Shown here in pieces: positions 6,261-60,476 of a stretch of DNA of 64,000 bases. A program made the translations under genes and the position numbers. The stretch spans positions 38,633 to 102,632 of the forward strand of contig JABYQR010000151.1 in the NCBI GenBank assembly GCA_022592445.1, in the 5' to 3' direction. The first letter of the stretch is position 1, and each line of letters starts with the position of its first letter. The notes beneath the pieces were generated by a model. That model was not told where the DNA came from. It did no database searches and was given only the letters and a program-made list of their open reading frames with translations. Origin of the DNA: Cytidiella melzeri (lineage: Eukaryota > Basidiomycota > Agaricomycetes > Polyporales > Irpicaceae).

Positions 6261-6518
6261 TAGATAACGCGTAGGGGGTGAAAACGGATGACGTAAGCGT
6301 AGCTCAACGGTATGAGAAGACCGGAGACGTACTCGACAAACAGGAATAAACTTTTTTAAACGGTGGGAATGGGGACCCAGGGTTTCACGACAATCTCGAC
6401 CTAATGACACGGAGACAAGGGTTCGACGTGGCAGACAGGGACACGAAATGGATGACGACGAAGTGGTGGTGGTAGGCGTGAAGCACAATACTCTCACCAG
6501 CTATAAATCTTATACAGA

Positions 6519-7152
6519 TGTCTAGCCCAGTAAAGACCAAGTTAGCATTGAATACTACTAGCTATGTAGTACAGGAAGGAGTGGCTTACCTAGCCCAGTA
6601 AAGACCAAGAGGTCGAGATGGGGGCTAGGAGCGTACATGCAGCTGCTTATATAGACTTCAGGGACCTGCACACAGACCATGTTGAGGGCAGGCTTTGCAG
6701 GAAGCCGTGTGAACAAAGAACTACCTAAAGGAGAACAATAGCTATTGTCTACACCTTGCCAAGAACTCTACCCGTGAGAGAATCTATCTAAAAGGAGACC
6801 AACTATTGTATTCCATTCCCACACCTGTGAGAACATCCTTCCATAAAGAGAACAATAAGGAAAGAACAAAAGGAGTCCATGTGGACGTCATTTATGACAT
6901 CAAACCCTCGCTATGGGCTGAGCCATGTGGTTGTAGCCATGTGGTCTTACTTAAGCTAAGTCACATGCCAGTGTGACGTAGTAGCAAGTAATGTGACCGT
7001 GTGGAGCGTCTAAGCCACGTGATACGGGCGCTTAATAGACGTGCAAAGGAGTTTGTGTAGAGAAGGTTGCAACTGAGCTGCAGCCCGGAGTTTTATAGAT
7101 AAAAACAAGAGGTAAATTGCGAAAATTAAGGGCTAGTCAGGCCATCCATGAC
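6519..7152 (-). repeat. 5' LTR of element A
   Basis: About 634 bp, bounded by TGTC at 7152 and GACA at 6519 on the minus strand. It aligns with the LTR of element C (59574-60217). It contains the hairpin-intron-repeat module described separately at 6522-6609. Confidence 0.85.
6522..6589 (-). other. Putative intron inside LTR A, flanked by an exact 20-nt repeat
   Basis: On the minus strand CTTGGTCTTTACTGGGCTAG (6590-6609) is followed by GTAAGC. The same 20 nt recurs at 6522-6541, ending in AG, with TGCTAAC as a branch-site candidate about 20 nt before that AG. The 68-nt interval therefore has every splice signal. Confidence 0.6.
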
Positions 7153-7437
7153 AGGCAACGGTATTATTGGGAATATATAAGTGCTTATCCTGACACAGAG
7201 ACAGGGCTCAACGTGACAATCAGGGACACGAAGTGGAAAACAACAAGGAGGTGGTGGCAGGCGTAGAGCACAATGCTTTCACCAGCTATCGGACTTTGTT
7301 CAAGTTGCTAGCCCAGTAAAGACCAAGTTAGTATTGGTACTACCCGCTATGTAGTACAAGAGGGGGTTGCTTACCTAGCCCAGTAAAGACCAAGAGGTCG
7401 AGATGGGGGGCTAGGAGTGTACATGCAGCTGTATATA
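7153..7437 (-). repeat. Remnant of another element-A-type LTR and leader
   Basis: This segment matches element A at 6430-6650 with many substitutions. It includes the duplicated CTAGCCCAGTAAAGACCAAG motif (7308-7327 and 7375-7394) and a TACTAAC branch motif. It is cut at 7437 by element B and at 7153 by element A. Confidence 0.75.
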
Positions 7438-7932
7438 TGTCAAAAACACAACCAAACTCTATGAAGAGCGAGGAAGTGACAACGGGGGAGGAACGACGAG
7501 CGAACTCGCGTGAACAATGACGACAGGGGTGATGATGATGAGGAAAGAGAGAGAAACGACAACGAGGGAGTAGCTGACAATGAGCTAAAGACCAGGATAT
7601 ATTAGTACAGTGATAGACCTAGTACAAGGTAGACGTCACCTAAAGACCAGGAGGTAGAATCTGAGGTCTTTAGGGAGCTACAAGGTGGGTTTATATACAT
7701 CTCAGACAAGGACCCCTGGTACCGGGTATGTACTCCTAACACTGCCGTGGGAACATATGGTGTGCTATGGTGCAATGTTCTACAATGTTCCACAATGTTC
7801 CAGCACCTTCTATGATCATGTGACCAGTCTGTCACATGTACTTGATCACATCAGGAGCCATGTGCCATCGATAAGATAAGATAAGGAAAAATAAAAGGAA
7901 AAGAAAAGTAAAAAGTGTGCCTGTTCGTGACA
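7438..7932 (-). repeat. 3' LTR of element B
   Basis: 495 bp with TGTC and GACA ends, matching 16573-16830 plus 19811-20037 at nearly every position. A TATA box (tttatata on the plus strand, 7690-7697) is followed about 16 nt later in transcription by a perfect 10-bp stem (CCTAAAGACC/GGTCTTTAGG, arms 7665-7674 and 7639-7648). A putative 55-nt intron at 7585-7639 has donor GTGACG and branch TACTAAT. The stem sequence is repeated at the acceptor. Confidence 0.88.
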
Positions 7933-14307: not shown

Positions 14308-15095
14308 TGTCGCGGAGCGACTGCTGTTATGCTGCTAAACCCTAAATAAGGGCGAGGAAGAAGGGGAGTGGAAGTGGAAGTGGATCTCCAACGACAATAA
14401 CGAGGTCAAAGTCAATGATGAGCAGGCAAGCAGGCTCAGAGGCCGGATACTGGCAGTGCAAATGACAAAGTTAATATCAAGCTTAAACTAGGTTACATTG
14501 AGTAACTCACCTGGCAGTGCAAATGACGAAGAGGTCAAGATGCAGAACCAGGGAGGGTAAGGGGTACTATATATACTGTGTCTGGGTGGTCTGTGCACTA
14601 GTTCCCACACTAGGGACTGGAGTAACTGTGGGGCTGGAGTAACAATAGAACAATAAGAGACCAGGGTAACTGTTAAGGACCTGAGTAACTGTCAAGGACC
14701 AGGGTACATAGAACAATAGAACTAGAACAATAGACAATAGAACAATAGAATCAGGAACAATAGAACAATAGGAACTGGGGGAATCCCTAACAATAGACAA
14801 AAGACAATAGACGGAAGACAATAGAACAATAGGACTGGGGGAATCCCTGGGGAATCCCTATCAATGGAAGTGGAACAATAGAACAGTAACCTAGGTTGAT
14901 CTGGAACCGCTCCAGATTGAGTCTAGGGTTTGGGTCTGGACTATTGATAAATAAGGCAGGATTTCACGTGACCCGGGTTAGGGTTAGGTCCGGTAACACT
15001 TCTAGCCGGAAAGTAAGCGCTCTAGATAGGCGCCTAAGGCTGTAAACTTGTGACATTGTTGGAAAAATCCGGTCTCTGTTGGACTATCCATGTCA
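14308..15095 (-). repeat. Solo LTR, family E (copy 1)
   Basis: 788 bp with TG...CA ends on the minus strand, flanked by a perfect 5-bp duplication (GCCCA at 14303-14307 and 15096-15100). It aligns with copy 2 at 58273-58992. The middle is built of ATTGTTCT-like short repeats. A putative 61-nt intron lies at 14450-14510 (donor GTGAGT, branch ATATTAAC) with the exon end duplicated (14450-14470 and 14511-14531, one mismatch). Confidence 0.88.
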
Positions 15096-16468: not shown

Positions 16469-16830
16469 TACAACGTACTGGTAAACCGGGGGGACTAAAC
16501 TTTTAAAAACTTTGGGGCAAGGGAATATGCGGTTGTGCGACGTCCAGGCGAGTGTACGGAGATTCTACCTAATGTCAAAAACACAACTAAACTCTATGAA
16601 GAGCGAGGAAGTGACAACGGGGGAGGAACGACGAGCAAACTCGCGTGGACAATGACGACAGGGGTGATGATGATGAGGAAAGAGAAAGAAACGACGACGA
16701 GGGAGTAGCTGACAATGAGCTAAAGACCAGGATATATTAGTACAGTGATAGACCTAGTACAAGGTGGACGTCACCTAAAGACCAGGAGGTAGAATCTGAG
16801 GTCTTTAGGGAGCTACAAGGTGGGTTTATA

Positions 16831-16857
16831 AGATAGACCCAGGTCATTTTCGACTAC
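16831..16857 (+). repeat. Left 27-bp terminal inverted repeat
   Basis: Identical to the reverse complement of 19782-19808. Confidence 0.93.
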
Positions 16858-16995
16858 TATCGTCACACTGTGACGTGTCATGTGATTATCACGTGCGCCG
16901 TTCCGATAAGCCTCTGCGCGTCGTACTTGCGCTTGAACATACTCAGTAGTCATATATTCATTGTAGTGTACGTTGAAAAAATATCAGACAAGATT

Positions 16996-19626
16996 TTAAA
17001 CCATGTTTTCGGCTGTGAGACGTTCGAAAACATCATTATGAATCACTCTATGGCCGGAATATTTCTTACTAGCCCAAGCAGCCTGCTTTCCATTAAGGCC
17101 CTTGTGGTATGCATCCGAAAAGCGCAGGGCTCGGGTATAGAAACTGGATCGAGATGGTCAGAACAGCCGTGGTATGCATGAATAGAATAGTTACTTACCA
17201 GCGAATACATTTCAGGGGCACCGAGTCCAGAGCCGCAACGAGATTTGCTTGAAGATCTGCCTCCTTCTTTGAGGCCGGATTCTTGCGGTAAATCCGCTTC
17301 GAGTAGCCCCAGCACTGCTCAATGGGATTGAGCTCACAATGGAATTTTGGGAGGAACAGGCAGCCAACACCTTCCTTCTCGCACTGAAGCTCAAGAAGGG
17401 ACTTTGCATCTGTAAAGTCCGGCTGGTGAAAGAGAAGGCGACGGCAGCAACATGGGTTGGCCGAGTAGAATTCCAAAGGTGCGAGACCATTCACAGGCGG
17501 TGGGCATTGAAATTTTGGGCATTGCGCACGAAGCTGATGTGCGTTCTCGTAGCCCCGCTCGGTGAGAATTGTTGCCATACCTTTGAATGCGCCACGACGT
17601 GCAGGGTCAGGGTCATCCAATGGGAAATAAAGCGGTTGAACAACGCTGTTTGATAGAAGTCCATCTGTCATTGGACGGCGCTCCTTGAGAAGCTTTCCAT
17701 CAGGGCCGTATACAGGCTTCCCATCCGCCAATACGGTACTGTCAACCCCAAAATTCTTCTCCGGGTTTGAGGAATTCTTCGGCATGCTGCGCGCAGAGAG
17801 AGCATCATCGGCTCGTTTCAGGTGAGTGGGAGCATTGTCAAAAACAAAGCAATGGTCGTCGTTGGGCCACTCTTGACGAACCAGTTTGATGGCAGCTTCA
17901 ACTTGTTCCAAAATATCCGCATTTGTGTAGTATCCGTCTCTGCTCTTTCCGGGACGGAACAATCGACAAGCTGACTCCTTTCCATCCGCAGATTGCAGCC
18001 AGCCGTAGTCCGCAGAGACAAAGTCCGAAACCATTAGCGATGCACCTTCGCCTTTTGCTCGAGGTACAGCCTTTTCGCCTTCATGTACCCATCGTACCTT
18101 ACGGCGATCGTTTGCGTAGAAGGTTGATTCATCATGCCACCAGATGACAGTTCGCCGGGATGGATCAATGCCGTGATTTCCCTCAGGATCGGTACGTGCA
18201 ATTTCATCCCCATTAGCATCGAACTGTCGTAACAATGGCCGCAGCTTCTCCAACGCTGGCAGGAACACCTCTTGGCGATATTTAACGACGTCTTCGCGCT
18301 CATGACCATCAACGTACTGCCCGCTCGGAATCTGAGCCCATCTATACCGTAAACTGTGCATCCAACCCTGGGCAGTCGAAAGTCCGATGGTCTTCTTTAG
18401 CCCGAAGCGTGTTTGATTGTCCGGCTCCGCGAGAAACTCGACAATATCAAGAGCGCGAACGTGCTGTCCGACAGATTGCAGATGTTCGCTAAGTGCCACC
18501 TCTAGGTCCTCATTTTCCAGCGCTGACATATTCCACATGCCATGGCGGTTGACAGGTAGATCATGACGATCACTAAGGAATCTTCGGGTCCATTCCCGGA
18601 GACGACGTGCGAGAGCTATTCCACCCTCATTAGCAACAGCCGTGCGCATTGAAGCATCAATCCAGCCCGGTGAGTCTCCTGTGATGTACAGCCAAAGGAA
18701 CATCCTCATCATCTCCATACGTCTCTGCAGGACGTCACCACCTTCGAAAGGCTTTTTCCCCTTTCCCGAAGGTTTGCGAGGGTGAAGCAATGCCTTCAGA
18801 TCTTCCCAGGCACGGCGAGCTTCATCTACTTCGGGGGGTGGAGTATAGGCCGAAGTTGTACATTGCGCGGGTATGTTGCTCCTTTCTGTGCTAGCCATTG
18901 ACTCTAGCTCAGCCTCTCTTTCCTTCGCAGCGCCTTCATTGTCTGATTCCCGCTCAATAGCATCAATTTCGACAATGACAGGTTCTGAGACTCCCGGCTC
19001 CGAGCTCTCCGAGATGGCATCGCTCGCGAAGCTGATCAAGCTGCCTCGGCTCGACGACCAGTTGGACGAAGTGTTGGATAGAGTATATGGACTGGGAGAA
19101 GTTGTTCTAGAAGGCAGGTTGACGACAGATGATCCAGGAGAGGCCGTGAAACGGTATGACCAGGTGGGTGTAGCGATTTCCTCAAAAGTGGACTGAAGCC
19201 GAATTCTGAGCTGACTTGTATTCAAAAAGCGACCAAACGACGAGGTGCTAGACACACGAGACAGTGTTGGATTATCTTCAGAAGGTGCTGAAGCGGTAGA
19301 GTGGATTTCTTCAGAATTTGTAGACATTGGCTGATTTCCGACTACAGTGCTAATATTGAGCACATCAGAGCTCACGGACTCGGAGACCTCGCCTCGAGTA
19401 CCCTGCTGCGCGTCCACTGAGGGCCGTGCTCCTCTCTAGAAAAGACAAGTAAGTTCACCCTCCGAGCCTGCTTTCTATGCTGCAGTGATAAACTCACTTT
19501 GTCGCCTATAGGCTGTTCATTCGAGGGCCAGCGGCTCAAAAGCCCTGAGACCTTCCGTTTTGCCTGCCCACCCCACTCAGTGATAGACTGAGAGATTCCT
19601 CGCTTCCGTTTCGCTGGCTCACTCAT
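16996..19626 (-). CDS. DDE transposase (IS630/Tc1/mariner superfamily), three exons
   Basis: Proposed exons are 19626-19498, 19435-17199 and 17143-16996, separated by introns of 62 nt (GTGAGT...CTAG) and 55 nt (GTAAGT...CCAG). All phases agree and give 837 aa. Catalytic residues are visible: first D in WWHDEST, second D in VFDNAPTH, third E in LNPIEQCWG, the arrangement of Tc1/IS630 enzymes that cut and paste at TA. The last exon adds a basic tail ending near GLNGKQAAWASKKY. The N-terminal 170 residues are Ser/Thr-rich and disordered-looking, starting with a basic KRKR motif that may be a nuclear signal. No stop or frameshift is seen, so the protein may be active. Using only the longest ORF would lose the final exon and add a wrong end. 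Confidence 0.88.
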
Positions 19627-19781
19627 GCTGAATTGCAGCTGTGAGGTTTGCGGCCCTTGGCTTGGTCAGAATAATTTTTGTTTCATCGCACTTATGTCTA
19701 CATTGAGCTTATAACCAAGTTATCATTTTATTCAAGACTTATTTGACGTGACAACGAGTGACAGCTTTTGAGACACGTGAT

Positions 19782-19808
19782 GTAGTCGAAAATGACCTGG
19801 GTCTATCT
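19782..19808 (-). repeat. Right 27-bp terminal inverted repeat
   Basis: Perfect inverted copy of 16831-16857, followed by the TA duplication. Confidence 0.93.
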
Positions 19809-20037
19809 TATACATCTCAGACAAGGACCCCTGGTACCGGGTCTGTACTCCTAACACTGCCGTGGGAACATATGGTGTGCTATGGTGCAATGTTCTACAA
19901 TGTTCCACAATGTTCCAGCACCTTCTATGATCATGTGACCAGTCTGTCACATGTACTTGATCACATCAGGAGCCATGTGCCATCGATAAGATAAGATAAG
20001 GAAAAATAAAAGTAAAAGAAAAGTAAAAAGTGTGCCT

Positions 20038-20303: not shown

Positions 20304-20528
20304 TGTTGTAAATGCAGGGTTTTGATGCGTGCACGGGAGGGGGCTTGAAATAAGGGAACACAATGTTATTTGATAGCTACACAGATACAAGGGTTTTATA
20401 TTATTTTAGTAAAACGGATAGGACAAAAAGGGAATAACAAAACGAGTAATCCGCGCGGAATGACAAAGGCGGGCGGCGGGAACAAACGGAAACAAACAAG
20501 AATCAGGCGGAAACCTAAAATAACAACA
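20304..20528 (-). repeat. 3' LTR of the gag-only element
   Basis: 225 bp. It differs from the other LTR at five sites only, at 20330, 20346, 20371, 20439 and 20465. Each is a CpG changed to TpG or CpA here. Confidence 0.92.
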
Positions 20529-20570
20529 CTCCCCCTCAACAAGCAGAGCGTGAGAACAAGCGCGAGTTGC

Positions 20571-21419
20571 CTAAAAGCTATACTCCGGCGCGTCGGTGTG
20601 AGTGTGCAAACCAATCGTAGCGAGGGGTCCCGTAGCGACCATTGAAAGAGCTGCCGGCGGAGTCGCCAAATTGGACTGAGCGGCGGGCTTGTCCTGTTCC
20701 TCACATTCGGGTCTGATGTGACCCTCCTTGCCACACTTGTGACAAGTAACTCCAGTATAAAAACGCCGTTTCTTCGGCATAACACAAGTGGCTGCAAAAG
20801 CCTGGGTAGTACCGCGGGACTTGCACCGAGATTCCTCCTGCACAATACGACCAATAAGGCTGGCAGAGGTGAGATCGCCATCAGCGGTGGTGACGGAAAC
20901 GAATGCGTCCCAAGATTCCGGTAACGCCGAAAGAATGCACATCGCGAGATCATTATCGCCCAATGCGGTATTGGTTCCCCGAACCATATTATATTCAATC
21001 CACAGACATTTAATGTCTCGGATTTTCACTGTGAGATCCTCCGTCTCGTCGATGTGGTAACCAAAAAGTTTGCGTCGGATAATGACGCGGGCAACACTGC
21101 CCTGAGTGGCAAAAACATTGGCCAAGGCATCAAAAGCCTCCTTCGAAGTTTCGGCGGCCATCACATGCATCATCATATCATTGTTGATGCGGAGACGGAT
21201 CGTGGTAAGCGCCTTCTGATCTTTGGCTTCCCATTCGCTTGTATCTCCTCGCCTCAGCTTTTCCACAGTACCGCTGACATGCCCCCAGAGATCCAATTCT
21301 CGGAGGATGTCGCTTAGCTGGATTCGCCACGTGAGATAATTTTCTGGTCCGGCGAGAGGGGTGATCCGATACGCAGATGATGTCGAAGTAGGGACAGGGG
21401 TGGCAACTTCTTCAGCCAT
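20571..21419 (-). CDS. Copia-type Gag protein (UBN2/Retrotran_gag family)
   Basis: This 282-aa protein should form the virus-like particle of the gag-only element. It starts at the first ATG behind the leader. The N-terminal half has the copia gag fold signature (GPENYLTWRIQLSDIL, then helical repeats with the conserved W and L). A CCHC zinc knuckle CHKCGKEGHIRPEC follows near residue 230, then a short tail. No pol frame exists behind it. The frame is intact, so selection or recency keeps it open. It probably acts with enzymes from a related copia element such as D. Confidence 0.88.
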   Translation of the reverse strand: MAEEVATPVPTSTSSAYRITPLAGPENYLTWRIQLSDILRELDLWGHVSGTVEKLRRGDTSEWEAKDQKALTTIRLRINNDMMMHVMAAETSKEAFDALANVFATQGSVARVIIRRKLFGYHIDETEDLTVKIRDIKCLWIEYNMVRGTNTALGDNDLAMCILSALPESWDAFVSVTTADGDLTSASLIGRIVQEESRCKSRGTTQAFAATCVMPKKRRFYTGVTCHKCGKEGHIRPECEEQDKPAAQSNLATPPAALSMVATGPLATIGLHTHTDAPEYSF

Positions 21420-21567
21420 AATGAAAAAGATTTGATATCGATATGGTGGCCTAAGAGCGTATTGCTGATGTAATGCTGCCCGAATAAGAGATGGTTCGGC
21501 CTAAGGGCACAATGCCGAGCTACTGTCGCCGCGAGATGAAAATCGAGAGGGTGTGCGCCTAGAGCGC

Positions 21568-21580
21568 GGGGCTCATAACC
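21568..21580 (-). other. Primer-binding site (initiator tRNA-Met anticodon loop)
   Basis: On the minus strand GGTTATGAGCCCC directly follows the 5' LTR. GGGCTCATAACC is the anticodon stem-loop sequence of eukaryotic initiator tRNA-Met, so priming would use a half-tRNA as in Drosophila copia and yeast Ty5. Confidence 0.75.
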
Positions 21581-21805
21581 TGTTGTAAATGCAGGGTTTT
21601 GATGCGCGCACGGGAGGGGGCTCGAAATAAGGGAACACAATGTTATTCGATAGCTACACAGATACAAGGGTTTTATATTATTTTAGTAAAACGGATAGGA
21701 CAAAAAGGGAATAACGAAACGAGTAATCCGCGCGGAATGACGAAGGCGGGCGGCGGGAACAAACGGAAACAAACAAGAATCAGGCGGAAACCTAAAATAA
21801 CAACA
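21581..21805 (-). repeat. 5' LTR of the gag-only element
   Basis: 225 bp. It retains CpG at all five positions where the other LTR has lost it. Confidence 0.92.
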
Positions 21806-25531: not shown

Positions 25532-25761
25532 CATCTCCCATCAATCACGCGCGGATTATCTCCGGCAACGTCCCCGCTCCCGCGCTCGCTGTCTACAACG
25601 ATGAGCGCTGTATAGTATAATTCCATGGCTTCCCCTTCGATTCACTTAGTTCTTTTTGGCTAAATATGGTAATAGAGTGTGTAGAATACGATTATGAAGT
25701 CCGATTTAATAATTACTTGATAGATCTCTCACTGTAGCCAGATCTGTAGTGGCCACAGGGG
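25532..25761 (+). repeat. Left arm of a perfect 230-bp inverted repeat
   Basis: Identical base for base to the reverse complement of 26361-26590. The arms enclose 599 bp. Confidence 0.93.
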
Positions 25762-26360: not shown

Positions 26361-26590
26361 CCCCTGTGGCCACTACAGATCTGGCTACAGTGAGAGATCT
26401 ATCAAGTAATTATTAAATCGGACTTCATAATCGTATTCTACACACTCTATTACCATATTTAGCCAAAAAGAACTAAGTGAATCGAAGGGGAAGCCATGGA
26501 ATTATACTATACAGCGCTCATCGTTGTAGACAGCGAGCGCGGGAGCGGGGACGTTGCCGGAGATAATCCGCGCGTGATTGATGGGAGATG
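26361..26590 (-). repeat. Right arm of the perfect 230-bp inverted repeat
   Basis: Perfect inverted copy of 25532-25761. No target duplication was found outside the arms. Confidence 0.93.
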
Positions 26591-32685: not shown

Positions 32686-32699
32686 AAACTCAACTCCTG

Positions 32700-32933
32700 T
32701 GTCAGAGAGTGACCCGCCTCGACAGACGGAATAGGAAGGAGAGGCGGGAAGTCAGAGAATGCGCGATCAGCGTGATACTAAACACGGAACATCCGCGATC
32801 ACGTACCTATTGTATATATAGCCAGTACTGGCACAGGAGCAACTCATCTGTTGCTTATCCTGTGCCAGGTACGTGCCGTCCACCGCACCCAATCAATCTG
32901 TTGCTTATCCTGTGCCAGACCGTCTGATTGACA
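32700..32933 (+). repeat. 5' LTR of element D
   Basis: TGTC...GACA ends. TATA box at 32813-32820. A stem (CTGGCACAGGAGCAAC at 32828-32843 against 32846-32868) lies just downstream. The 23-nt stem half ending CTGTGCCAG is repeated exactly at 32896-32918. Confidence 0.95.
32869..32918 (+). other. Putative 50-nt intron inside LTR D, with duplicated exon end
   Basis: Donor GTACGT directly follows the first 23-nt repeat, and the second repeat ends in CAG at 32918. The branch site is weak (around CAATCAATC). The same structure is in the 3' LTR. Confidence 0.45.
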
Positions 32934-32946
32934 GGTTATGAGCCCC
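32934..32946 (+). other. Primer-binding site of element D (initiator tRNA-Met anticodon loop)
   Basis: GGTTATGAGCCCC directly follows the LTR and is identical to the site in the gag-only element (21568-21580). It is complementary to the anticodon stem-loop GGGCTCATAACC of initiator tRNA-Met. Confidence 0.75.
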
Positions 32947-34742: not shown

Positions 34743-37642
34743 GCCACATAGGCGTAAAAGGGCTTTCACGAACGACCACGGGAATCCATATCATTCCCGA
34801 CTACTCAGCCCAACACTCGTGCGAAACATGTGCGCGCGCAAACATAAAACGCCTTCCTTTCCCAAAATCTTCAAATCTCAGGGCTGATCGCCCTCTCTTC
34901 CGTATTCATCTCGATATCTGCGGTCCATTACCCATCGGCTACGGCGGCGTCAAATACTTCATGCCATGCGTTGATTGCCATGCCAGATGGAAGACTCCTC
35001 TGTTCCTGAAAACTCGTGCTGACGCTCTCCCTGAATTCATCAAATACAAAACCGCCGTTGAACGCTACACGGGATACAAGATTGCGGTTATCCGCGTAGA
35101 TAATGCACCTGAACTCATTCACGGCGATTTCAAGGCGTTCTGCGAGAAGGAGGGGATAACGGTAGAGAGGATCGTGCCTGATGCATCACCACAGAACGGC
35201 GTTGCCGAACGGACCAATTGGATGTTCGCGTCAATGGCACGGGCAATGCTAATTGACAGCAACCTCCCCGACTACTTCTGGCCACTGGCTGTCCAATGCG
35301 CGGCTCACATTCTCAACCGCGTCACCACAAGCGCTCTGCCTCCACACACAACTCCTTACCATGTCTGGAACAAACGCGACCCCGATATCTCACACTTCCG
35401 CATCTTCGGCACACGTGTCATCGCGAGGAAAACCGAAGCTGACGCATTGAACAAGATGCAAGCTCGAGGCGAAGAGGGTCGTTTTGTGGGCTATGCTCAA
35501 GACACCAAGGGTTACCTCATCTGGTTCCCTCACTCGCGAGTGGTGCGTGCCAGACGCGACGTCGTTTTTCTCGACGATGAACACAGCACAGCCACGCCTT
35601 CCAACCACTCGCCAAATACATCCCTATGGGATGACGTCCTCATGGACAACGACAGTCGCTTTCGCGATAAAGAAACGAACACTGACGCCATACCGCATCA
35701 GTACGTATACTCTGGCATACCACCAGAGACGGGATCTGACAAAATCTCCAGCAGAGACGTCACTCGAGCGACCTTAACGGGTGCCGAGGATCCCAGTGCC
35801 CCGGTGGGGTCCATACCAGAGGAACACACAGCGCACACGCGTGAGCCAACACGACGACCGCGTACGCTTCCATCCAGGTATAGGGAGAACAATGACGAGT
35901 ATTCGATCGAGGGGGGGTTGCCAATCGAACGAAACCTGGTTCTCAACGCTCAAACACACGCCATTGAACTTCAAGACCCAACATCATCCCTCATCATCGA
36001 CACCTTCGCCTCCCTCGCCTCGCCCATCAATGATCCAAACGCCAAAGACCCAAAGTCACTCGGAGAAGCCGAACGTAGTGAGTACTGGGAGCAATGGCTA
36101 GCAGCGATTCATGAAGAACTCGAGGCGTTACGCGCAAAGGGAGTGTACGAGGACATCGAGAGCGTTCCCCACGGCCGAAAACCCGTCGAGTCAAAGTGGG
36201 TCCTCCACCTGAAACGCAACTCGGACGGACACATCTCGAGGTTCAAGGCGCGACTGGTCGCCAAGGGATTCACGCAAATCCCTGGCCAAGACTTCACCTT
36301 CACCTTCGCTCCGGTCGCACGCTGGGATTCTATACGCACGATACTAGCGCTAGCTGCTCACGAAGACCTCTACTTACGCCATGTCGACATCAAAACTGCC
36401 TTCCTCAATGGACCACTATCAGAAGAGATATACATGACAAAGCCGGCGATCCTCGGAAAGGGCTACTGGCGTCTCCGGAAGGGCTTGTACGGTCTCAAGC
36501 AAGCCGGACGATCCTGGTACCTCGAGTTCAACGAGAAGTACCAAACGTTGGGTTTCCGCAGGTGCGAATCGGACTGGAGCGTTCATGTGCGGGAAAGGAA
36601 CGGTATCAAGTCGATGTCGGCCACAAGCGTCGACGATATACTGTTGGCCACACCTTCGGAGACTGAGTCCAACTTGGTCACAGACGGGTTGAAAGGGATT
36701 TTCGACATCACCGACAACGGCGAAGTCAAATGGTTGTTAGGCTGCAAGGTGACAAGAAATCGAGCACGCAGAACGATCCAACTGTCTCAAGAAGCATACA
36801 CTCTGTCAATACTTCGCCTCTTCAACATGGAGTTCTGCAACGCTGCGACAACACCGCTACCACCCAAGACGACGCTGACACGCGAAGACGAGTCAAAGAC
36901 CGAGGTTGAACGCGCCGAAATCAAAGCCCTACCTTACTGCACGCTCGTCGGAAAGGTGATGTACTTAGCCACCACCACCAGACCGGACATCGCCTACGCC
37001 GTTCGCGAGCTCGCGAAGTACATGTCTTGCTACGGATCCGCACACTGGGCAGCCGCAAAGCACCTACTACGATACCTACAAGGCACTCGATCTCTGGGAC
37101 TCATTCTGGGGAATCTAGACCCGGCGTACCCACTATTCTATGGCTTCACCGACTCTGACTGGGGATCCGGTGAAGGACGAAAGTCGATATCGGGATATGT
37201 CATGGTAGTGCACCAGTCACCGGTGGCATGGAGTTCGAAACAACAGTCAGTCGTCGCCCTGTCCTCGTGTGAGGCTGAATACCTCGCATGCACGCACGCA
37301 GCATGTCAAATCCTCTGGCTCCGACAACTCCTCGAGGAACTCGGCATCCCACAATCGAACCCCACACCACTATTCTGTGACAACAATGGGACTATCGCGA
37401 GTACGCACGACCCGCACGGTCACACGAGGATGAAACACATCGACATTCGCGCGCACTTCATAAGGAATTGCGTCAACGAAGGGAAGATTGATGTCACTCG
37501 CGTATCTGGGAAGGAGAACATGGCCGATATATTCACCAAATCGCTACCACGGATACTACATACAAAAGGAGTGGAGATGTTGGGATTACTCGCGGGTCAA
37601 GGGGGGGTGTCAGAGAGTGACCCGCCTCGACAGACGGAATAG
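34721..37642 (+). CDS. Integrase-reverse transcriptase-RNase H ORF of element D
   Basis: About 973 codons open from the HRLLGHIG pre-integrase motif. The first ATG-led frame starts at 34961. The zinc-binding H-H-C-C set is followed by the integrase core (DICGP, VDNAPE, and the catalytic E in NGVAERTN). The reverse transcriptase has KARLVAKGFTQ, HVDIKTAFLNG and a catalytic SVDDIL box, where most copia elements read YVDD. RNase H shows DSDWG, SSCEAEY and KHIDIRAHFIR. The stop lies 35 bp inside the 3' LTR. All catalytic acids are present, so the enzyme set may be functional if the -1 junction is crossed. Confidence 0.92.
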   Translation, partial: GFLHRLLGHIGVKGLSRTTTGIHIIPDYSAQHSCETCARANIKRLPFPKSSNLRADRPLFRIHLDICGPLPIGYGGVKYFMPCVDCHARWKTPLFLKTRADALPEFIKYKTAVERYTGYKIAVIRVDNAPELIHGDFKAFCEKEGITVERIVPDASPQNGVAERTNWMFASMARAMLIDSNLPDYFWPLAVQCAAHILNRVTTSALPPHTTPYHVWNKRDPDISHFRIFGTRVIARKTEADALNKMQARGEEGRFVGYAQDTKGYLIWFPHSRVVRARRDVVFLDDEHSTATPSNHSPNTSLWDDVLMDNDSRFRDKETNTDAIPHQYVYSGIPPETGSDKISSRDVTRATLTGAEDPSAPVGSIPEEHTAHTREPTRRPRTLPSRYRENNDEYSIEGGLPIERNLVLNAQTHAIELQDPTSSLIIDTFASLASPINDPNAKDPKSLGEAERSEYWEQWLAAIHEELEALRAKGVYEDIESVPHGRKPVESKWVLHLKRNSDGHISRFKARLVAKGFTQIPGQDFTFTFAPVARWDSIRTILALAAHEDLYLRHVDIKTAFLNGPLSEEIYMTKPAILGKGYWRLRKGLYGLKQAGRSWYLEFNEKYQTLGFRRCESDWSVHVRERNGIKSMSATSVDDILLATPSETESNLVTDGLKGIFDITDNGEVKWLLGCKVTRNRARRTIQLSQEAYTLSILRLFNMEFCNAATTPLPPKTTLTREDESKTEVERAEIKALPYCTLVGKVMYLATTTRPDIAYAVRELAKYMSCYGSAHWAAAKHLLRYLQGTRSLGLILGNLDPAYPLFYGFTDSDWGSGEGRKSISGYVMVVHQSPVAWSSKQQSVVALSSCEAEYLACTHAACQILWLRQLLEELGIPQSNPTPLFCDNNGTIASTHDPHGHTRMKHIDIRAHFIRNCVNEGKIDVTRVSGKENMADIFTKSLPRILHTKGVEMLGLLAGQGGVSESDPPRQTE
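37595..37607 (+). other. Polypurine tract of element D
   Basis: GGTCAAGGGGGGG directly precedes the 3' LTR. Confidence 0.7.
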
Positions 37643-37841
37643 GAAGGAGAGGCGGGAAGTCAGAGAATGCGCGATCAGCGTGATACTAAACACGGAACAT
37701 CCGCGATCACGTACCTATTGTATATATAGCCAGTACTGGCACAGGAGCAACTCATCTGTTGCTTATCCTGTGCCAGGTACGTGCCGTCCACCGCACCCAA
37801 TCAATCTGTTGCTTATCCTGTGCCAGACCGTCTGATTGACA
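37608..37841 (+). repeat. 3' LTR of element D
   Basis: Identical to 32700-32933 at all 234 positions. Confidence 0.95.
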
Positions 37842-58272: not shown

Positions 58273-58992
58273 TGACATGGATAGTCCAACAGAGACCGGA
58301 TTTTTCCAATATTGTCACAATTTTATAGCCTTAGGCGCCTATCTAGAGCGCTTATTTTCCGGCTAGGAGTGTTACCGGACCTAACCCTAACCTGGGTCAC
58401 GTGACATCCTGCCTTATTTATCAATAGTCCAGACCCAAACCCTAGACTCAGTCTGGAGCGGTTCCAGATCAACCTAGGCTATTGTTCTATTGTTCCTCTT
58501 CCATTGATGGGGATTCCCCAGGGATTCCCCCAGGTCTTATTGTTCTATTGTTCTTATCCTATTGTTCTATTGTTGTGTTGTTCTAGCTCTATTGTTCTAC
58601 GTACCCTGGTCCTTGACAGTTACTCCGGTTCTTGACAGTTACCCGGGTTCATTATTGTTTTATTGTTACTCCAGTCCCTCAGTTACTCCAGTCCCTAGTG
58701 TGGGAACTGGTGCACAGACCATCTAGACACAGTATATATAGTACCCCTTACCCTCCCTGGTTCTGCATCTTGACCTCTTCGTCATTTGCACTGCCAGGTG
58801 AGTTACTCAATGTAACCTAGTATAAATATGATATTAACTTCGTCATTTGCACTGCCAGTATCCGGCCCCAGTGCCTGCTTGCCTGCTCATCATCGACTTT
58901 GACCTCGTTGTCGTCGTTGGAGATCCACCCCCTTCCTCTCTACTTCACCCCCTCTTTAGGGTTACCAGCATAGCAGCAGTCGCTCCGCGACA
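58273..58992 (+). repeat. Solo LTR, family E (copy 2)
   Basis: 720 bp, TGACATGG...GCGACA, with a perfect TGTGC duplication (58268-58272 and 58993-58997). TATA box at 58733-58740. Short TATTGTTCT repeats fill 58480-58600. A copy of 21 nt lies at 58777-58797 and again at 58838-58858 around a putative intron. An open frame reading through 58273-58366 is LTR sequence, not gag. Confidence 0.9.
58798..58858 (+). other. Putative 61-nt intron inside LTR E, with duplicated exon end
   Basis: Donor GTGAGT, branch ATATTAAC at 58831-58838, acceptor CTGCCAG. The 21 nt before the donor are repeated exactly at the acceptor. Confidence 0.6.
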
Positions 58993-59573: not shown

Positions 59574-60217
59574 TGTCATGGATGGCCTGACTAGCCCTTA
59601 ATTTTCGCAATTTACCTCTTGTTTTTATCTGTAAAACTCCAGGCTACAACCTAGTTTCAATTCTCTTTGCATAAACTCCTTTGCACGTCTATTAAGCGCC
59701 CGTATCACGTGGCTTAGACGCTCCACACGGTCACATTACTTGCTACTACGTCACACTGGCATGTGACTTAGCTTAAGTAAGACCACATGGCTACAAGCAC
59801 ATGGCTCAGCCCATAGCTAGGGTTTGACGTCATAGATACTGTCCACATGGGCTCCTTATTGTTCTTTCCTTATTGTTCTCTTTATGGAAGGATGTTCTCA
59901 CAGGTGTGGGAATGGAATACAATAGTTGGTCTCCTTTTAGATAGATTCTCTCACGGGTAGAGTTCTTGGCAAGGTCTAGACAATAGCTATTGTTCTCCTT
60001 TAGGTAGTCCTTTTGTCCTTCGTTCACATGGCTTCTTGCAAAGCCTGCCCTCAACATGGTCTGTGCGCAGGTCCCTGAAGTCTATATAAGCAGCTACATG
60101 TACGCTCCTAGCCCCCATCTCGACCTCTTGGTCTTTACTGGGCTAGGTAAGCAAACCCCTCCTGTACTACATAGCTAGTAGTACCCAATACTAACTTGGT
60201 CTTTACTGGGCTAGACA
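59574..60217 (+). repeat. 5' LTR of element C
   Basis: About 644 bp from TGTCATGG to CTAGACA. TATA box at 60083-60089. An 8-bp stem CCTAGCCC/GGGCTAGG has arms at 60107-60114 and 60140-60147, and its 3' arm spans the splice donor. Confidence 0.88.
60147..60214 (+). other. Putative 68-nt intron inside LTR C, with duplicated exon end
   Basis: CTTGGTCTTTACTGGGCTAG at 60127-60146 is followed by GTAAGC. A perfect TACTAAC branch motif is at 60189-60195, and the same 20 nt recur at 60195-60214, ending in AG. Confidence 0.65.
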
Positions 60218-60476
60218 TCTGCATAAGGTTTATAGCTGTTGAGAGTATTGAGCTTCACGCCTACCACCACCACTTCGTCGTCATCCACTTCGTGTCCCTG
60301 TTTGTCATGTCGAGCCTTGTCTCCGTGTCATTAGGTCGAGATCGTTGTGAAACCCTGGGTTCCCCCATTCCCACCGTTTAAAAAAGTTTATTCCTGTTTG
60401 ACGAGTACGTCTCCGGTCTTCTCATACCGTTGAGCTACACTTACGTTGTCCGTTTCTACCCCCTGCGCGTTGTCTA

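What the first reader, a model, noticed from the sequence alone, without database searches (positions are those of the whole stretch)
60107..60214. Hairpin-intron-repeat module shared by four unrelated LTR families
In LTR C the order after the TATA box is: inverted 8-mer (60107-60114), the 20-nt CTTGGTCTTTACTGGGCTAG (60127-60146), donor GTAAGC, branch TACTAAC, and the same 20 nt again ending in AG (60195-60214). LTR B has a perfect 10-bp stem (7665-7674/7639-7648), donor GTGACG, branch TACTAAT and a repeated 13-mer at the acceptor. LTR E has a 21-nt repeat around GTGAGT...TTAAC...CAG. Copia LTR D has a 16-nt stem and a 23-nt repeat around GTACGT...CAG. Chance repetition of the exon end exactly at the acceptor in four families, two of them from different superfamilies, is unlikely. 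Inference: the leader is spliced, and the duplicated exon end may let minus-strand strong-stop cDNA made from spliced RNA anneal to the second copy in the 3' LTR, so the intron survives reverse transcription. Alternative: it is only a structural R-region signal.
Basis: partly seen in the sequence, partly recalled or inferred. Interest (0 to 1): 0.92.

Follow-up and report, generated by a model that had tools for sequence, protein, structure and literature searches.

The report
Intron that survives reverse transcription
Several families of jumping genes in a mushroom-type fungus seem to carry a small intron in their end repeats together with a duplicated scrap of the preceding exon, placed where it could let the intron be copied back in each time the element passes through spliced RNA, a step that should normally erase introns.

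Summary
Gypsy families B, C and E and copia families D and D2 (D2: one copy seen) of a 49.7-Mb fungal genome carry in the LTR, behind the TATA box, a hairpin whose 3' arm ends at an intron-like donor, an intron of host-like size, and a second copy of the exon end that finishes at the acceptor.

(1) B, C and E look like Tf1-type self-primers: the PBS is complementary to the first 10-11 nt of the inferred RNA, and the repeat starts at nt 11, where strong-stop cDNA would end. In copia D, with another PBS, it starts at the inferred nt 1 (1-3 nt further upstream in 8 of 18 modules). (2) In D the two copies change together (17 of 19 variant sites, 23 modules); C is too uniform to tell. (3) 6.5-8% of C, D and E LTRs have lost exactly the intron, seven inspected C elements in both LTRs; no tandem expansions were found in C or D. 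(4) Splice motifs and length resemble host introns.

Best reading: cDNA from spliced 5' RNA is extended on copy 2 of the unspliced 3' LTR, restoring the intron and rewriting copy 2. Splicing, RNA start and poly(A) site are inferred; no RNA data were available.

The parts
59574..60330 (+). LTR C (gypsy, 757 bp, TGTCAT...GTGTCA), 5' LTR of an element running off the window
   Evidence: Boundaries from the sequence and LTR pairs in other loci
60083..60089 (+). TATA box (TATATAA); inferred RNA start 34 nt from its first T
   Evidence: Sequence; the distance is 34 at 13 of 17 self-primed places with a TATA match (35 at three, 32 at one)
60107..60114 (+). Arm a of the hairpin, CCTAGCCC, just upstream of the inferred RNA start; pairs with 60140-60147, which includes the first base of the donor
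   Evidence: Sequence; fold z = -3.0 against single-base shuffles
60117..60126 (+). Inferred first 10 nt of the RNA (ATCTCGACCT), the self-primer
   Evidence: Reverse complement of the PBS at 60333-60342
60127..60146 (+). Copy 1 of the 20-nt repeat, end of exon 1 (nt 11-30)
60147..60214 (+). Putative 68-nt intron: donor GTAAGC, branch TACTAAC at 60189-60195, acceptor CTAG
   Evidence: exact loss of this segment elsewhere
60195..60214 (+). Copy 2 of the 20-nt repeat, the 3' end of the intron
60333..60342 (+). Primer-binding site AGGTCGAGAT, two bases after the LTR end
   Evidence: Complement of 60117-60126; same layout in other loci
6522..6629 (-). Second C module: arm and primer 6610-6629, copy 1 6590-6609, intron 6522-6589 with copy 2 6522-6541; PBS 6393-6402
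7308..7415 (-). Third C module in an LTR whose U3 is interrupted by LTR B: arm and primer 7395-7415, copies 7375-7394 and 7308-7327
7585..7674 (-). B module: stem 7665-7674/7639-7648, inferred RNA start AGATTCTACC, copy 1 7640-7652, copy 2 7585-7597, donor GTGACG, branch TACTAAT
16560..16808 (-). Second B copy: arm and primer 16788-16808, copies 16775-16787 and 16720-16732, PBS AGGTAGAATCT 16560-16570 matching the leader start AGATTCTACCT
58756..58858 (+). E module: arm 58756-58760, primer ATCTTGACCT 58767-58776, copy 1 58777-58797, donor GTGAGT, TTAAC, copy 2 58838-58858
14450..14552 (-). Second E module: primer 14532-14541, copies 14511-14531 and 14450-14470 (one mismatch)
32828..32918 (+). 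D (copia) module in the 5' LTR (32699-32933): arm from 32828, inferred RNA start and copy 1 32846-32868, donor GTACGT, copy 2 32896-32918
32934..32945 (+). D primer-binding site GGTTATGAGCCC, read as half-initiator-tRNA type (recalled identification)
   Evidence: no tRNA was compared
37736..37826 (+). D module in the 3' LTR (37607-37841), identical to the 5' one

Best explanation
The module is an intron-keeping device built into the R region of LTR retrotransposons. Transcription from the 5' LTR starts about 33-34 nt after TATA, just downstream of arm a, so the 5' end of the RNA lacks arm a; exon 1 (23-31 nt) is spliced to exon 2. Reverse transcription starts at the PBS, with the cut-off first 10-11 nt of the RNA as primer in gypsy B, C and E and probably a half-tRNA in copia D. 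The strong-stop cDNA copies exon 2 and then the rest of exon 1, ending at nt 11 (self-primed) or nt 1 (tRNA-primed). In the 3' LTR the RNA is unspliced and holds copy 1, intron, copy 2 and exon 2. Because copy 2 has the same sequence as the exon end, the cDNA can pair with copy 2 plus exon 2 and be extended into the intron, copy 1 and U3. The intron is thus restored, and copy 2 is overwritten by copy 1 in every cycle. Pairing with copy 1 instead gives an intron-less LTR, the side product seen at 6.5-8%. The hairpin, whose arm a is transcribed only in the 3' LTR, most likely hides the donor there, as RNA structure is proposed to do in foamy viruses, so that the 3' copy is neither spliced nor bound by U1. 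Selection for the intron itself may come from the dependence of gene expression on introns in several basidiomycetes. Shown by sequence: anatomy, repeat boundaries, primer/PBS complementarity, concerted change in D, exact losses. Inferred: transcription start, splicing, strand transfer at copy 2, role of the hairpin, reason for selection.
For: (1) Right edge: the repeat ends at AG|GT and AG| in B, C, D, D2 and E. (2) Left edge: in C, E and B the PBS is the complement of the leader start (ATCTCGACCT, ATCTTGACCT, AGATTCTACCT) and the repeat starts at nt 11 (the start typed for B was one base too far, so its 'nt 10' reads nt 11); the E PBS was predicted and then found at 252 places. In D, with another PBS type, the matched repeat starts at the ATC 33 nt after TATA in 10 of 18 modules and 1-3 nt further upstream in 8. 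(3) Concerted change in D: 21 of 23 unique modules have identical copies although 10 distinct copy-1 sequences occur; 17 variant sites changed in both copies (9 kinds of change), 2 in one. In E the two variants in view differ at 3 sites in both copies. (4) Exact intron loss: C 48 places against 533 with the donor (561 less 28 that by my count meet both patterns), D 3 against 43, E 40 against 576; seven C elements lack it in both LTRs, six with matching 5-bp target duplications. No tandem expansions in C or D (exact patterns). (5) Six actin-family intron candidates here are 50-67 nt with GTRNG donors, CTNAY-type branches and YAG (whose filter asked for these motifs; reading frames agree on both sides by eye); LTR introns are 49-68 nt and C, E, D and D2 donors mostly fit GTRNGY. 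(6) Hairpins z -2.8 to -6.9 in 6 of 6 modules, with compensatory changes between the two E variants and between D and D2. (7) One intron haplotype occurs with four exon-2 types. (8) Precedents: Tf1 self-priming with cleavage after base 11 (PMC7175516, passages); structure blocking U1 at the 3' LTR donor of foamy virus (PMC3694450, abstract); intron need in basidiomycetes (PMC4935854, passages).
Against: No RNA evidence; splicing, TSS and poly(A) site are inferred. Concerted change rests on D: in C, 23 of 26 modules have identical copies, but all 23 carry the same sequence, and the 4 variant sites in the other 3 are in one copy only; one E module also differs in one copy. 19 of the D modules were picked, mostly because both copies matched the pattern, which favours alike copies; the 5 unique D/D2 modules met without that choice (window, L036, L043, L044, L047) all have identical copies. 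By kinds of change the D count is 9 against 2. The linkage test is only suggestive: r(intron,U3) .35 (p .004) against r(intron,U5) .10 (p .20) with 22 LTRs, but another window gave .27 (p .016) against .19 (p .010), bootstrap intervals of the difference all include 0, and with all 24 LTRs (two with foreign U3) the order was reversed, -.13 (p .82) against .18 (p .05). Folding: donor pairing rises in the 3'-LTR context in only 4 of 6 modules, and copy 2 is less paired than copy 1 in only 4 of 6. One element (C5:8796) has a PBS with one mismatch to its leader start. Intron-less LTRs could also arise by deletion between direct repeats; D element C240 has one intact and one intron-less LTR. The B donor GTGACG departs from GTRNGY. 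In gypsy the branch site abuts copy 2, so the left edge might reflect the branch rather than the cDNA end.
Confidence: 0.64

Rival explanations
1. The R region has a spliced leader intron, but the repeat only supplies an acceptor-side sequence or structure; the intron persists because enough genomic RNA is packaged unspliced, and intron-less copies are occasional spliced templates.
For: Intron-less LTRs are a minority (C 48 against about 533; E 40 against 576), as expected if most packaged RNA were unspliced. Donor, branch and length look functional. C gives no sign of concerted change.
Against: Does not explain why copy 1 and copy 2 change together in D (17 of 19 sites), nor why the repeat begins at or near the strong-stop end in two priming modes.
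Confidence: 0.18
2. A structural R-region signal without splicing: hairpin plus repeat guides first-strand transfer or packaging; AG/GT and branch-like motifs are coincidental or relics.
For: Hairpins beat shuffled sequence in 6 of 6 modules, and R is where strand transfer happens.
Against: Five families have AG|GT at one repeat edge and AG at the other, 9 of 93 words against 0 of 93 in the control; motifs and lengths resemble host introns; without splicing no copying from copy 1 to copy 2 is expected, and unspliced cDNA slipping to copy 2 would give expansions, of which none were found in C or D.
Confidence: 0.1
3. Direct-repeat slippage or gene conversion in DNA (or template jumping by the reverse transcriptase) both deletes the spacer and homogenises the copies; no programmed mechanism.
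For: Exact loss between perfect direct repeats is what slippage gives; D element C240 has one intact and one intron-less LTR.
Against: Loss in both LTRs of seven C elements means inheritance through reverse transcription; slippage should also make triple copies, 0 found in C and D; it does not explain the repeat edges or the splice signals.
Confidence: 0.08

Closest known systems
Tf1/sushi self-priming retrotransposons (S. pombe Tf1)
   Same: First 10-11 nt of the inferred RNA complementary to a PBS just after the LTR; gypsy pol with chromodomain integrase. Tf1 facts from PMC7175516 passages.
   Different: The passages seen describe no exon-end repeat or donor hairpin in the LTR (they mention a cryptic intron in Tf2); here the repeat begins exactly behind the primer.
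Drosophila copia / yeast Ty5 half-tRNA priming (recalled)
   Same: Copia D has GGTTATGAGCCC directly after the LTR.
   Different: Intron with duplicated exon end in the LTR; the tRNA match was not tested here.
Foamy viruses, major splice donor in the LTR upstream of the poly(A) signal
   Same: Splice donor in the LTR; RNA structure said to block U1 at the 3' LTR (PMC3694450, abstract).
   Different: Here the acceptor also lies in the LTR and a second copy of the exon end is present; restoring an intron is not part of that abstract.
Intron-dependent gene expression in basidiomycetes
   Same: Offers a reason why an LTR element would need to keep a 5' intron (PMC4935854, passages).
   Different: Concerns reporter genes in those passages, not retroelements.

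Membership tests
Tf1-like self-priming gypsy elements | RNA 5' end complementary to a PBS next to the 5' LTR | tested here: met
   C, B and E: complementarity of 10-11 nt at the fixed place; one copy with a mismatch (C5:8796). The RNA start itself is inferred
Tf1-like self-priming gypsy elements | Gypsy pol with chromodomain integrase | tested here: met
   RVT_1, RNase H, rve and Chromo domains in two ORFs of the minus-strand C element in the window; not tested for B and E
Tf1-like self-priming gypsy elements | RNase H cut behind the primer region | not testable with these tools
   Needs biochemistry; consistent with the repeat starting at nt 11
Copia with half-tRNA priming | PBS complementary to the initiator tRNA anticodon arm | not tested
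   GGTTATGAGCCC after LTR D; tRNA identity recalled
Spliceosomal intron of this host | GTRNGY donor, CTNAY-like branch, YAG acceptor, about 50-67 nt | tested here: met
   Six actin-family candidates (motif-filtered) against C, E, D and D2; B donor deviates, and two of the fetched D copies have other donors (L049 ATACGC, L053 GTACAC)
Spliceosomal intron of this host | Removed from RNA | not testable with these tools
   No RNA data; exact intron-less genomic copies are indirect
Foamy-virus-like donor in the LTR with structural control | Donor upstream of the poly(A) site, hidden in the 3' LTR | tested here: inconclusive
   Arm a is upstream of the inferred start and the stem includes the donor G in B, C and E; poly(A) site not mapped; long-context folding mixed

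The most novel reading that the evidence does not exclude
A self-perpetuating spliceosomal intron: LTR elements of two superfamilies keep an R-region intron through spliced-RNA intermediates by ending the intron with a copy of exon 1 that is rewritten by strong-stop cDNA in every cycle, the repeat edges being set by each element's own priming chemistry, and with a U3-encoded hairpin arm that confines splicing to the 5' end.
Probability: 0.55. Interest if true: 0.95.

Novelty: new variant of a known kind. Interest (0 to 1): 0.86.

Why it matters
Reverse transcription of spliced RNA should delete introns, so retroelements are expected to lack introns inside LTRs. A built-in way to regenerate one would be a new use of strand transfer, could explain how retrotransposons thrive in fungi where expression depends on introns, and gives a simple genomic signature (exon end repeated at the acceptor, left edge at the strong-stop end) that can be looked for in other genomes.

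Tried and rejected
Hairpin as a TAR-like structure at the RNA 5' end: rejected, because PBS complementarity puts the RNA start behind arm a in B, C and E. Repeat = whole exon 1 in all families: held for copia D, rejected for gypsy, where the first 10 nt are not repeated; this led to the self-priming finding. First linkage run with all 24 C LTRs gave the opposite order; two LTRs with foreign U3 were dropped afterwards, and both results are given. Conservation profile of 24 C LTRs (arm .99, primer .99, copy 1 1.00, donor .99, TATA .90, mid-intron .90, U3 .91-.92, branch plus copy 2 .97, exon 2 .88 and .85, last segment .54 and partly outside the LTR): not used as evidence, because the script admitted only modules with near-exact primer, copies and donor. 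Identity of C copies (22 of 24): likewise forced by that filter; the looser count (23 of 26) replaces it. Search for relatives in viral contigs with the C and D pol proteins: none. Literature: no description of an intron kept in an LTR by a repeat turned up in the listings of searches of the open-licence library (two were on side topics); a 2001 survey of Cryptococcus retrotransposons that might bear on it is not held, so priority is not established. The host is taken for an Agaricomycete because the 5 organism names visible among the 120 hits listed for the C pol ORF are, to my knowledge, all of that class; the species was not identified.

Full report
Setting. The window lies in contig C59 of a 49.7-Mb, 731-contig genome. 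The C element's pol ORF has 3471 hits at E <= 1e-60; of the 120 listed, five show organism names (Ganoderma, Lentinula, Moniliophthora, Phanerochaete, Psilocybe), which I know as Agaricomycetes. The species was not identified. Pfam shows RT, RNase H, integrase and a chromodomain for the minus-strand C element and copia domains for the D element.

Observation. In 258 kb, 9 of 93 distinct direct-repeat words of 12-40 nt at 35-130 nt spacing end in AG followed by GT; in the reversed sequence 0 of 93 do. The nine belong to families C, B, E, D and a second copia family D2, of which one copy was seen. Copia family F in the window has no such repeat. The C 20-mer occurs 2025 times in the genome.

Anatomy. 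In these families the order is TATA, arm a, inferred RNA start, loop, arm a' = exon end, donor, intron, copy of the exon end, exon 2. The inferred start lies 31-35 nt from the TATA motif. All six hairpins tested fold better than 300 single-base shuffles, z -2.8 to -6.9. In B, C and E the stem includes the first base of the donor. Stem partners change together between the two E variants (CTGG/CCAG and CTAG/CTAG) and between D and D2 (GGCACAGG/CCTGTGCC and GGTACAGG/CCTGTACC), as read.

Priming and the left edge. Behind the C LTR stands TTAGGTCGAGAT, whose last ten bases are the reverse complement of ATCTCGACCT, the sequence at the inferred RNA start. B has AGGTAGAATCT against AGATTCTACCT. From E's leader I predicted TTAGGTCAAGAT behind its LTR end; the search found 252 places with at most 3 mismatches, the 100 listed ones exact, control 0. 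One C copy (C5:8796) has a one-base mismatch. Tf1 works this way: its first 11 bases pair with the PBS and RNase H cuts between bases 11 and 12 (PMC7175516, passages). After such a cut the strong-stop cDNA ends at the base behind the primer, and that is where the repeat starts in B, C and E. Copia D has GGTTATGAGCCC behind its LTR, which I recall as the half-initiator-tRNA type; there nothing would be cut from the RNA, and the repeat starts at the ATC 33 nt after TATA, the inferred nt 1, in 10 of the 18 modules; in the other 8 the match runs 1-3 nt further upstream (about a quarter would do so by chance). Two priming modes thus give two left edges, matching the expected cDNA end exactly in gypsy and within 0-3 nt in D.

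Concerted change. The 26 D/D2 modules in hand reduce to 23 unique ones; 21 have identical copies although 10 different copy-1 sequences exist. Against the commonest sequence, 17 variant sites (9 kinds of change) are changed in both copies and 2 in one (sign test on 17:2 p 0.0007, which treats related modules as independent). The mean difference is 0.4% within modules and 6.0% between modules. Nineteen of the 26 come from a list of pattern matches and were mostly picked because both copies matched; the other seven (5 unique: window, L036, L043, L044, L047) were not, and their copies are all identical. Of the 20 regions fetched the twentieth, L068, holds a D-type leader without intron and second copy. 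In C, 23 of 26 modules found with up to 5 mismatches have identical copies, but these 23 all carry one and the same sequence, and the 4 variant sites in the other three lie in one copy each. C therefore shows uniformity, not concerted change. In E the two variants in view differ at three sites in both copies, and one module has a one-copy change. The model predicts concerted change, because cDNA of copy 1 becomes copy 2; changes after insertion would be single.

Intron loss. Exon 1 joined directly to exon 2 is found at 48 places in C. One search, for exon 1 followed by the donor, counts 561, but its 3 mismatches also admit 28 of the 48 by my count of the listed strings, leaving about 533; that makes 8%. 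D gives 3 against 43 and E 40 against 576, 6.5% each. All depend on the patterns. Of the 48 C places, the 20 with fetched sequence are all intron-less; at least three others (C56, C225, C419) could instead be mutated donors. Seven inspected C elements lack the intron in both LTRs, six with matching 5-bp target duplications, so the loss was passed through reverse transcription; six of the seven were fetched because one search listed both LTRs. D element C240 has one intact and one intron-less LTR, which points to DNA-level deletion in that case. Tandem expansions (donor-donor spacing of one unit, exact patterns) number 0 in C and 0 in D, and were not sought in E; symmetrical slippage would make both.

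Host introns. Six intron candidates in actin-family gene pieces are 50-67 nt, with GTRNG donors, CTNAY-like branches and YAG acceptors. The script asked for these motifs, so they show that such introns fit the reading frames, not how common they are. LTR introns are 66-68 nt with one of 61 (26 C modules), 60-61 (E), 55 (B) and 49-55 (D) nt. C, E, D and D2 donors mostly fit GTRNGY; B (GTGACG) and a few single copies do not.

Mosaics. One intron haplotype is joined to four exon-2 types (five LTRs), so exchange happens at or near copy 2. If the intron comes from the 3' LTR template it should travel with U3. After dropping two LTRs with foreign U3 (C9:104532, C59 minus 46036), the intron correlates with U3 (r .35, p .004) and less with exon 2/U5 (r .10, p .20), U3 and U5 being unlinked (-.06). 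Other windows gave .27 (p .016)/.19 (p .010).39/.12 and .36/.05; 20 LTRs gave .31/.11 and .20/.10, the last pair not significant on either side. All six bootstrap intervals of the difference include 0, and the undropped set gave -.13/.18. I count this as a lean, not a proof.

Mechanism. RNA from the 5' LTR lacks arm a, can be spliced, and gives a strong-stop cDNA that ends in the complement of the exon end. In the unspliced 3' LTR that cDNA matches copy 2 plus exon 2 (as far as the poly(A) site) but copy 1 over the repeat only; extension from copy 2 restores the intron, extension from copy 1 loses it. The hairpin can form only where arm a is transcribed, that is in the 3' LTR. [quoted passage not shown] I propose a like role here. 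Folding of longer stretches raised exon-end pairing in 6 of 6 modules (marginally in one) but donor pairing in only 4 of 6, and copy 2 was less paired than copy 1 in 4 of 6. Why keep an intron: introns are needed for expression in several basidiomycetes (PMC4935854, passages).

Novelty. Ten library searches listed no paper that, by title, abstract start or the passages opened, describes such a module; most subscription papers are not in that library, and a 2001 Cryptococcus retrotransposon survey that might bear on it could not be read. I file the elements as members of known kinds (self-priming gypsy, copia) carrying an apparently new device.

Noticed in passing
window 20304-21805 (-): Short copia-type element (225-bp LTRs, gag ORF 20571-21419 as its only ORF of at least 250 aa, GGTTATGAGCCC behind the 5' LTR) inserted into copy 1 of a D-type LTR; it lacks the repeat module
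   Followed up: partly
window 16831-19808: About 3 kb insertion with a DDE_3 transposase ORF (17195-19417) splits a B-type LTR whose halves are 16572-16830 and 19809-20037
   Followed up: no
window 7191-7922 (-): A B-type LTR abuts the TATA region of a C-type LTR whose module stays intact, so its U3 is foreign
   Followed up: partly
window 25532-25761 and 26361-26590: Perfect 230-bp inverted repeat about 600 bp apart, unexplained
   Followed up: no
L049 (G000:C5:86500-86900): D-type LTR with the donor changed from GT to AT while both repeat copies stay identical
   Followed up: no
G000:C5:8796 (L043, L044): C-type element whose PBS is of the E type (AGGTCAAGAT) while its leader start is ATCTCGACCT, a possible recombinant
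   Followed up: no
L068 (G000:C134:28950-29350): D-type leader without intron and with a diverged upstream arm; a second single-copy match lies 4.96 kb away, so both LTRs of this element may be intron-less (second one not read)
   Followed up: no
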